NCBI RefSeq assembly: GCF_038396675.1
Contig: NC_088927.1
Span: 32,487,001 to 32,551,000, forward strand
DNA: 64,000 nt
Direction of reading: 5' to 3'
Source of the DNA: Hydra vulgaris
Lineage: Eukaryota > Cnidaria > Hydrozoa > Anthoathecata > Hydridae
Shown here: positions 57,113-59,335 of the stretch, in pieces
How the letters are laid out: each line of letters starts with the position of its first letter
How positions within the stretch are numbered: position 1 is the first letter of the stretch
Made by a program: the position numbers and the translations under genes
Notes under the pieces: model-generated
Told to the model about the DNA's origin: nothing
The model's database searches: none
The model's input: the letters and a program-made list of their open reading frames with translations, nothing else

Positions 57113-58004
57113 ATGCTCTAAGTTGTGAAATGGCGTCAGCCAACAACATCAGTTAGTTACTTTCTTTTTTCAATAGCTCAGCAGTTATTTTTATTATATA
57201 TATATATATATATATATATATATATATATATATATATATATATATATATATATATATATATATATATATATATATATATATATATATATATATATATATA
57301 TATATATACAAATGACTTACTATATGCAAATTTTTATATTACTTTGTAAAAATAAAGTTAATTTAATTTGTTTAGATGAACTTGCTTTACAGAGGATCAG
57401 TCAGTTATATCCCTATTATATGAATTAATTTAGTATTTAGTCATTTACTATTAGTTTTCAAATACAGTTCTTTAATATGCCTATGTAGATTGTTGTTAGT
57501 TGTATTTTTGCATACCTAATTCTTACATTTTATTAAGTCACTTTTTTTTTTCTGTAGACAAATTAGAACAAACAATCAGTAAGTTTAGTTTAGATTGTTT
57601 TAGTTACTATATCATTTAAAAGTATTTGTATGCTGTGTTAGTATTCCTTGTTAGCTTTGAATAAACGTTTTGATTTAAAATTGGTATTTAGGTGAGTACG
57701 GCCAGCAGATACGTAAGTTTCATAGATTTCTATATTTTTCAACATATAACTAATTGATACATCATTACAAATATAAACTTCAAGTAAATGTTTTAAATTA
57801 AAATTGGTATTTAGGTGAATATGGCAAACAAATATGTAATTTTTGTAGGTTTCAATATTTTAAAGTGTATACTTTGTTAATACATCATTATATAGATATT
57901 ATAACGCGAAACAAGTGCATTTTAAAGTTGAAATATATTCCATTCACATTCCAACAATTTTAATTTATTTTCTTTATCTTTAGCAAACCTTACTTCGATA
58001 ATTG
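57113..58004 (+). CDS. Microexon gene, part 1: coiled-coil-like heptad microexons
   Basis: Six candidate exons between AG and GT: 57113-57151 (39 nt), 57376-57399 (24), 57558-57578 (21), 57692-57712 (21), 57815-57835 (21), 57984-58004 (21). Every length is a multiple of three. Read in phase 1 all are open, whereas phases 0 and 2 meet stops in several exons (57113, 57558, 57692, 57984). The peptides are [12 protein letters not shown], then NELALQRI, NKLEQTI, SEYGQQI, REYGKQI, SNLTSII: a heptad-like pattern ending in Ile. Exons 57692 and 57815 with their upstream introns are a tandem duplication (about 123 bp, both preceded by AAAATTGGTATTTAG). The donor of 57376-57399 is GTCAGT. The first exon was not found; an internal ATG at 57130 could start translation. 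Function unknown. Confidence 0.6.
57196..57308. repeat. (TA)n microsatellite
   Basis: In the intron after the 39-nt exon. Confidence 0.97.
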
Positions 58005-58014
58005 GTGAGAGAAT

Positions 58015-58130
58015 TTATATATATATATATATATATATATATATATATATATATATATATATATATATATATATATATGTATATATATATATGTATATAT
58101 ATATATATATATATATATATATATATATAT
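58015..58130. repeat. (TA)n microsatellite
   Basis: In the intron between the heptad and octad parts of the microexon gene. Confidence 0.97.
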
Positions 58131-58173
58131 TAATGGAAGGAGACTTATATTATGCCATTTAATTCATATTTAG

Positions 58174-59335
58174 TGTCACTGTCGTCTATTCCTGCTGGTA
58201 AGGTTTATATATTCTTACTTTTCGATATGATTATAATTGCTAAATAATTGTGAGGTTATGTTGTGTATTGTTTTTTTATTTTTTAGTATCATCATCGTCC
58301 ATTACTGTTGGTAAGTTTTATATATTATTATTTTTCAGTATAGTTTTAATTATAAAATAATTGTAAGGTTGTTTTGTGTATTGTCTTTTTATTTTTTAGT
58401 ATTATCTTCATCCGTTACTGTTGGTAAGGTTTATATATATATATATATATATATATATATATATATATATATATATATATATATATATATATATATATAT
58501 ATATATATATATATATATATATATTTATATATATATATATATATATATATATATATATATATATATATATATATATATATATGTATGTATATATATATTG
58601 TTAATTACAAATAATTTTAAGTATGGTTTCAATTATTAAATAATTATACAGTTATGTTGTGTATTGCATTTTTTGTTTTTTAGTATCAACTTCATCATTT
58701 ATAATGGGTAAGGTTTTTATACTTTTATTTTCATATATGATTTTAATTTCTAATTTATTTTAAGGTTGTGCTATATTATTTAATTTTTTCATATAAAGTT
58801 TTTCATATAACATTTTTTGATCATATAAGTCTATGCTATAGTATTTTATATTTTTATTTTTTAGTGCCATCATCATCGAAACAAGTTGGTAAGGTATAAT
58901 CTAAACCTTTCAACATGATTGTTATTACAAAATAAATACAAGATTTTATTTTTTATTTTAGTGCCACTTGCATCTGTTCCATTTGGTAATGTCATATATT
59001 TTCAATAAGAATTTATAGATCTTAAATAAGAAATATTTTCCAGTATCGACAAATAGTTTACATATATAGTTGCAAGATAATGTAATGTATTTTTATTTTT
59101 TAGTTTTATCTTTTTCTGTTAATACTGGTAAGGTTTACATATTTTTACTTTTTAACAACCAAATAATTTTAAGACGTGGCTGTATTTTATGTTTATTTTT
59201 TAGTGCCATCGTCATCTGAACGAATTGGTAAGGTGTATAAAGTGAACTTGTAATTGGAAAATTATTACAAGAATTTGATTTTAGTTTATTATGCCAATTT
59301 CTTTATATTAGTGCAAATTTCATCTGTTCCAGTTG
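58174..59335 (+). CDS. Microexon gene, part 2: nine 24-nt octapeptide microexons
   Basis: Exons 58174-58197, 58287-58310, 58400-58423, 58684-58707, 58865-58888, 58962-58985, 59104-59127, 59204-59227 and 59312-59335. Each is exactly 24 nt, follows TTTTAG or similar and precedes GTAAGG/GTAAGT/GTAATG. The exception is the last, whose donor has become CTAATG. In phase 1 they encode [72 protein letters not shown]. The introns are homologous to each other (two are 89 nt), so the unit of about 113 bp duplicated as exon plus intron. (TA)n expanded inside the GTAAGGTTTATATATA part of one intron. A possible terminal exon is 59531-59559 (GFCYTWLER, stop), low confidence. Expression unproven. Confidence 0.65.
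58431..58598. repeat. (TA)n microsatellite
   Basis: Expansion within an intron of the 24-nt exon array, at the position where sister introns have only TTTATATATT. Confidence 0.97.

What the first reader, a model, noticed from the sequence alone, without database searches (positions are those of the whole stretch)
57113..59335. Array of fifteen phase-1 microexons (nine of exactly 24 nt) made by tandem exon-intron duplication
Between 57113 and 59335 there are fifteen short segments framed by AG and GT, of 39, 24 or 21 nt. All are multiples of three and all are open in phase 1, while other phases hit stops in several. The last nine are exactly 24 nt and encode Ser/Val-rich octapeptides of one pattern; four of the earlier ones encode heptapeptides. 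The introns are homologous, so the exon-plus-intron unit (about 113 or 123 bp) was copied in tandem. Symmetric microexons like these allow any number to be skipped without losing frame, so one locus could give many repeat-length variants. Schistosome micro-exon genes are the nearest known analogue; I know of none described in this type of genome.
Basis: partly seen in the sequence, partly recalled or inferred. Interest (0 to 1): 0.9.

Follow-up and report, generated by a model that had tools for sequence, protein, structure and literature searches.

The report
Jumping gene built from tiny exons
In Hydra, the row of tiny exons in this window is probably not a stand-alone host gene but part of a gene carried by a cut-and-paste transposon that left dozens of mostly decaying copies over the chromosomes.

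Summary
In detail: all 15 segments lie exactly at the stated places, all open in phase 1, 14 of 15 followed by GT. The interpretation changes. The window is Hydra vulgaris-like (911.5 Mb, 15 contigs). The array recurs at 39 other places at 92-99% identity (40 of 135 candidates scored), inside a DNA transposon with 11-bp terminal repeats and 7-bp target duplications. The window holds a truncated, internally deleted copy, 56657-60658. A relative, L020, carries the frame on through exons 16, 17 and a terminal exon; a transposase gene follows in L020, L041 and L029. An NCBI Hydra protein, LOC136092362, equals the peptide of these joins. The inferred protein begins in exon 1 and has a coiled coil with about one exon per heptad, then Ser/Val octapeptides, one exon each. 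Among 21 copies exons change at least as fast as introns, without codon bias: the copies drift. Several young transposase copies lack most of this gene. No RNA data were available. I recall no transposon gene cut into such exons; whether it is the element's own or captured is open.

The parts
56657..60658 (+). Truncated, internally deleted copy of the transposon that carries the array
   Evidence: Similarity to fetched copies starts at 56657 and the right terminal repeat ends at 60658; no left terminal repeat found here
60648..60658 (-). Right terminal inverted repeat, TCACGTACCTA
   Evidence: matches the left end TAGGTACGTGA of other copies
56863..56875 (.). Place where about 360 nt present in other copies such as L012 are missing from the window copy
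57113..57151 (+). Exon 1 (39 nt) with in-frame start codon, ..GAA ATG GCG TCA GCC.. = MASANNI
   Evidence: an acceptor without a known upstream exon would fit trans-spliced leader addition (inference)
57376..57399 (+). Exon 2 (24 nt) NELALQRI
57558..57578 (+). Exon 3 (21 nt) heptad NKLEQTI
57692..57712 (+). Exon 4 (21 nt) heptad SEYGQQI
57815..57835 (+). Exon 5 (21 nt) heptad REYGKQI
57984..58004 (+). Exon 6 (21 nt) heptad SNLTSII
58174..58197 (+). Exon 7 (24 nt) octapeptide VSLSSIPA
58287..58310 (+). Exon 8 (24 nt) VSSSSITV; donor GT here, majority letters over 21 copies gc
58400..58423 (+). Exon 9 (24 nt)
58684..58707 (+). Exon 10 (24 nt)
58865..58888 (+). Exon 11 (24 nt)
   Evidence: its L020 counterpart is within NCBI protein P0121
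58962..58985 (+). Exon 12 (24 nt)
59104..59127 (+). Exon 13 (24 nt)
59204..59227 (+). Exon 14 (24 nt)
59312..59335 (+). Exon 15 (24 nt); donor CT in this copy, gt in the majority of 11 copies
59478..59479 (.). Approximate junction of the internal deletion that removed exons 16, 17, the terminal exon and the transposase gene
   Evidence: window and L017 join positions 11448 and 15948 of the chromosome-15 sequence

Best explanation
The array is exons 1-15 of a gene carried by a DNA transposon family of Hydra vulgaris. Pieced together from different copies, the order is: left terminal repeat, 17 small exons, a terminal exon, a DDE-type transposase gene on the same strand, right end, about 9 kb in all (inferred; no single copy with all of it was seen). 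Shown: dispersal, terminal repeats, 7-bp target duplications, internal deletions, the open spliced frame in L020, and one NCBI protein equal to its 3' part. Inferred: the transposase moves these copies in trans; the protein of about 200 aa self-associates through the heptad coil, has a flexible Ser/Val stretch and binds nucleic acid through an RGG-rich tail seen in some copies; tandem copying of one-repeat exons changed coil and linker length without breaking the frame. The window copy is a non-autonomous derivative and the copies compared are drifting. Whether the gene is the element's own or a captured host gene is left open here.
For: Dispersal: 39 other places at 92-99% identity, 40 of 135 candidates scored. 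Ends: TAGGTACGTGA repeat; identical 7-bp flanks in 8 of 10 two-ended copies, 5 of those 8 not simply ATATATA. Continuation: L020 exons 2-17 all in phase 1 into one terminal exon. Protein P0121, LOC136092362 [Hydra vulgaris], 133 aa, identical over its length. Gene followed by transposase in L020, L041 and L029, the last two degraded. Internal deletions of at least three kinds: window and L017; L011 and L012; L013 and L019, which may be one deletion in a tandem repeat; L022 may be a further one or an enlargement of the second. Transposase relative P0122: model pLDDT 83; all 10 PDB matches with E of 0.001 or less are Hermes, best 7e-6, TM-scores low. Terminal exon: 19 places, all 19 candidates scored; of 13 examined, 9 are followed by transposase sequence or the element's right end. 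Drift: exon changes 125/5745, intron 259/16461; codon positions 36, 50, 39 of 1915 each; nonsynonymous to synonymous ratio 0.78, p 0.23.
Against: No RNA reads could be examined. I could not see what lies behind the NCBI protein, which covers only the last codon of exon 10 to the stop. No copy with both terminal repeats, the whole gene and the transposase was seen. Transposase copies at 97-98% identity lack most of the gene: L042 keeps exons 1-5 only, and L044-L046 show left-region sequence where such a deletion would place it, so the protein seems dispensable in cis. At the one examined locus of a transposase family about 72-77% alike (L043), a weight-matrix scan and blastn show no array in 4.8 kb upstream. 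Selection on the terminal exon is not significant in 9 copies (p 0.37), though the pair L020/L030 alone suggests it (synonymous 8.5/32.7, nonsynonymous 6.5/111.3). The 7-bp duplication is not the hAT rule (8 bp, recalled).
Confidence: 0.82

Rival explanations
1. The transposon captured a piece of a Hydra host gene that was already rich in tiny exons and multiplied it. This is a rival about origin and does not exclude the best explanation.
For: The intron-rich structure is host-like; no array was seen upstream of the one examined transposase of a diverged family; several transposase copies lack most of the gene.
Against: Of 19 terminal-exon places, 13 were examined and 9 of these are in transposon context; none of the 13 was shown to be a separate host gene, but 4 of the 13 are undetermined and 6 of the 19 were not examined. 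No homologous protein outside Hydra was found: one hit among 611 candidates, by a method that needs shared 5-residue words.
Confidence: 0.35
2. A host micro-exon gene at this locus makes length variants by exon skipping.
For: Exons are symmetric and mostly keep splice sites, length and frame: 213 of 241 exon copies that could be scored, out of 315 possible.
Against: Dispersed copies, window copy without terminal exon, no constraint among copies, start codon in exon 1 and no signal peptide by eye.
Confidence: 0.05
3. The segments are chance matches in a tandem repeat and are never spliced.
For: Homologous introns and AT-rich sequence make AG and GT common; the PWM scan is circular.
Against: Exons 1-6 differ in sequence from 7-15 yet share the phase; the joined frame runs into a terminal exon; an NCBI protein equals the joined peptide.
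Confidence: 0.03

Closest known systems
DNA transposons with DDE transposases of hAT-like fold and their internal-deletion derivatives
   Same: Short terminal repeats, target duplications, transposase model that matches Hermes best, non-autonomous copies made by internal deletion
   Different: 7-bp duplication rather than the 8 bp recalled for hAT; no Pfam family for the transposase at E 0.1 beyond two sub-threshold matches; an extra gene with about 17 small exons
Schistosome micro-exon genes (PMC8293314, passages read)
   Same: Runs of short symmetric exons that can be left out without frame loss
   Different: [quoted passage not shown] here none was seen by eye and the gene rides in a transposon
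Aphid KQY/KHI cassette genes (PMC7495047, abstract and outline) and bicycle genes (PMC9168663, passages)
   Same: Many tiny exons; internal exons of bicycle genes also begin at codon position 2
   Different: Insect salivary or gall genes; no transposon context in what I read; sequence relation not tested
LINE ORF1-type coiled-coil nucleic-acid-binding proteins (recalled)
   Same: Coiled coil and basic nucleic-acid-binding part, carried by a mobile element
   Different: Here a DNA transposon and a gene of tiny exons; no sequence comparison was made

Membership tests
Non-autonomous DNA transposon | Many dispersed near-identical copies | tested here: met
   39 other places at 92-99% identity, 40 of 135 candidates scored
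Non-autonomous DNA transposon | Terminal inverted repeats with target-site duplication | tested here: met
   TAGGTACGTGA; 8 of 10 two-ended copies with identical 7-bp flanks, 3 of the 8 in TA repeats; the window copy keeps only the right end
Non-autonomous DNA transposon | Derives from a longer element with transposase | tested here: met
   At least three kinds of internal deletion relative to the chromosome-15 sequence with transposase; movement in trans not tested
hAT superfamily | Transposase of hAT fold | tested here: inconclusive
   Best PDB matches are Hermes, but TM-scores are low and identity 11-13%; no Pfam transposase family
hAT superfamily | 8-bp target duplication (recalled) | tested here: not met
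   7 bp
Dada superfamily | Related transposase, 6-7 bp target duplication, insertion in small RNA genes | not tested
   Only the 7-bp length fits (PMC3706591, passages); transposase not compared; copies often lie in TA repeats
Schistosome-type micro-exon gene | Many symmetric exons of 36 bp or less | tested here: met
   Exons 2-17 of 21 or 24 nt, all phase 1; exon 1 is 39 nt
Schistosome-type micro-exon gene | Signal peptide, secreted or membrane product | tested here: inconclusive
   Inferred N terminus MASANNINELALQRI looks polar by eye; no predictor was run and an unseen upstream exon is possible
Schistosome-type micro-exon gene | Alternative splicing of the micro-exons | not testable with these tools
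   No RNA data

The most novel reading that the evidence does not exclude
A DNA transposon lineage encodes its own second protein from about 17 microexons, each one heptad or one octapeptide, so that exon duplication and skipping tune the length of a coiled-coil, RGG-tailed protein that helps the element, in the manner of LINE ORF1 proteins.
Probability: 0.3. Interest if true: 0.78.

Novelty: new variant of a known kind. Interest (0 to 1): 0.55.

Why it matters
Transposon genes usually have few introns (general knowledge). A mobile element with a gene cut into exons of one protein repeat each would show how micro-exon genes can be spread ready-made over a genome, and gives dozens of natural copies in which to measure when tiny exons are still recognised by the splicing machinery. 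It also warns that micro-exon arrays found by eye in repeat-rich genomes may be transposon cargo rather than host genes.

Tried and rejected
An aphid origin was my first guess. Rejected: the assembly has 911.5 Mb in 15 contigs, like the 912-Mb, 15-chromosome Hydra AEP haplotype (PMC12220107, passages), and the only protein found for the joined peptide is a Hydra record.

Rfam on the window: no match at gathering thresholds. Pfam on the joined peptide: only matches below cut-off. A YqaJ nuclease gene beside the array in L020 was considered as part of the element and left out: its junction with exon 2 was seen in that copy only. A transposase-like frame next to the gene in L030 I read as Tc1/mariner-like from memory; its Pfam matches are all below cut-off; left out as a rearrangement. 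The Dada superfamily was considered for its 6-7 bp duplications and not tested. Paper searches for tiny exons in transposons, Hydra microexons or one exon per heptad listed nothing alike in titles and abstract starts; those papers were not read, so this does not show absence. DeMarco 2010 is not held. Scripts that failed: time limit, redone; error, redone. Rows left out of counts: exon copies below 85% identity or with too little flank; columns with fewer than four letters.

Full report
Where it is. The window is C8:32487001-32551000 of a 911.5-Mb assembly in 15 contigs. The AEP haplotype of Hydra vulgaris is 912 Mb on 15 chromosomes (PMC12220107, passages), and the spliced peptide matches a Hydra vulgaris record. 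I take the organism to be Hydra vulgaris, AEP-like; the assembly is unnamed in the tools.

The observation. All 15 segments are as described and open in phase 1 (15 of 15; 11 and 9 of 15 in the other phases). Exons 4-5 and 7-9 with their introns are detected as tandem copies. Joined in order, the window's exons read MASANNI NELALQRI NKLEQTI SEYGQQI REYGKQI SNLTSII and then nine Ser/Val-rich octapeptides. By eye, isoleucine recurs every seven residues from exon 2 on, with Leu or Tyr three residues further, the a/d pattern of a coiled coil. Each 21-nt exon carries one heptad; exon 2 carries eight residues. A start codon lies in exon 1. No coiled-coil or signal-peptide predictor was run.

A dispersed element. 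A 259-base piece of the array matches 40 places, the window included, at 92-100%, on 14 of 15 contigs; 40 of 135 candidates were scored, so this is a lower bound. I fetched 20 of the 39 others. The copies share an element ending in TAGGTACGTGA and its reverse complement; not every fetched copy keeps both ends. Of 10 copies with both ends, 8 have identical 7-bp flanks, 3 of these simply ATATATA; the other two agree in 6 and 5 of 7. These ten are 4155 to 6884 bases long. The window copy has its right end at 60658, lacks the left end, and lacks about 360 bases at 56862 that L012 has.

The longer relative. In L020 (chromosome 15), exons 2-17 keep phase 1 and the frame runs into a terminal exon that reads EPTYEDYVKYKSRYPGPLTNASFLRWLRNNGEDKPSFKWSRPPYLGGG.. 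to a stop. Exon 1 is not present in L020. L036 shows an RGG-rich tail in the terminal exon; the tail differs in length and frame between copies. Downstream on the same strand of chromosome 15 is a 778-aa stop-to-stop frame. Its relatives bear names from molluscs, fishes and other animals (192 proteins at E 0.001 or better among the 7994 candidates scored, 120 listed). Pfam gives only sub-threshold matches. A model of relative P0122 (mean pLDDT 83) matches Hermes transposase best: all 10 hits with E of 0.001 or less, with low TM-scores and 11-13% identity. L041 (chromosome 11, 82-91% alike piece by piece) shows the same order, gene then transposase then right end, with an internal deletion in the transposase, an insertion in exon 12, a stop in exon 15 and several changed splice sites. 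L029 shows a degraded gene and then transposase.

Non-autonomous copies. Against the chromosome-15 sequence, window and L017 share the junction 11448/15948, and L011 and L012 share 11679/16234. L013 (11163/15467) and L019 (11161/15664) may be one deletion, because the second point lies in a tandem repeat; L022 (11583/16394) may be an enlargement of the L011/L012 one. A further class keeps the gene through its terminal exon and joins to the right end: L025, L035, L036, L037, L053. L042 has both terminal repeats, keeps exons 1-5 and a 666-aa transposase frame. Of nine more transposase copies probed at one upstream place, three (L044-L046) show the left region with exons 1-2 where an L042-type deletion would put it, two (L050, L051) show the left end, four (L047, L048, L049, L052) show no match. 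L043, one locus of a family about 72-77% alike in transposase DNA, shows no array in 4.8 kb upstream.

Splicing evidence. P0121, NCBI's LOC136092362 of Hydra vulgaris, 133 aa, is identical over its length to the L020 join from the last codon of exon 10 to the stop. It was the only hit among 611 candidates. I could not see the evidence behind it. No reads were available.

Selection. In 21 copies (11-21 per exon after filtering) exons differ from the majority at 125 of 5745 bases and flanking introns at 259 of 16461; exons are slightly faster (p 0.003). Codon positions 1, 2, 3 differ at 36, 50, 39 of 1915. The nonsynonymous to synonymous ratio is 0.78 (p 0.23). Of 241 exon copies scored, 213 are intact, 15 have a changed splice site, 10 an indel and 3 a stop. 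L020 versus L041: exons 8-17 differ at 19 of 240, introns at 97 of 1081. Terminal exon, nine copies: 22/375, 22/385, 28/386 by codon position, flank 146/2080 (p 0.37). One pair, L020 and L030, does suggest constraint. So the copies drift; whether the ancestral gene was constrained is undecided.

Host gene or transposon gene. The terminal exon occurs at 19 places, with all 19 candidates scored. I examined 13: nine (L020, L025, L029, L035, L036, L037, L041, L053, L054) are followed by transposase sequence or the element's right end; L030 (two tandem places), L038 and L039 are undetermined. Six were not examined. No separate host gene was shown, but capture of one remains possible, and the loss of the gene from several transposase copies speaks against its being needed in cis.

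Verdict. A real array, probably misread as a host locus. It is the 5' part of a micro-exon gene riding in a DNA transposon.

Noticed in passing
window 45972-48215 (-): THAP plus TNP-like RNase H transposase; closest protein among those scored is 98% identical over 85% of the query.
   Followed up: partly
window 43690-45558 (+): Mutator-like transposase, one 622-aa stop-to-stop frame.
   Followed up: no
window 6620-7435 (-): PIF1-like helicase frame, perhaps of a Helitron (recalled).
   Followed up: no
window 52033-52551 (+): DDE_1 domain within a run of open frames 51104-52945.
   Followed up: no
L030; chromosome 8, about 37.955-37.965 Mb: Four tandem units about 3.29 kb apart; the two read join a transposase-like fragment to the 3' part of the micro-exon gene, followed by a stretch 70% like the element's left region.
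   Followed up: partly
L020:2586-3809 (-): YqaJ / viral alkaline exonuclease-like gene close to the junction with exon 2 of the array; origin unclear.
   Followed up: partly
L012:3818-3871: Exon 1 has a 15-base in-frame insertion, not seen in the other 11 copies scored for this exon, that resembles an inverted copy of the exon's own start.
   Followed up: no
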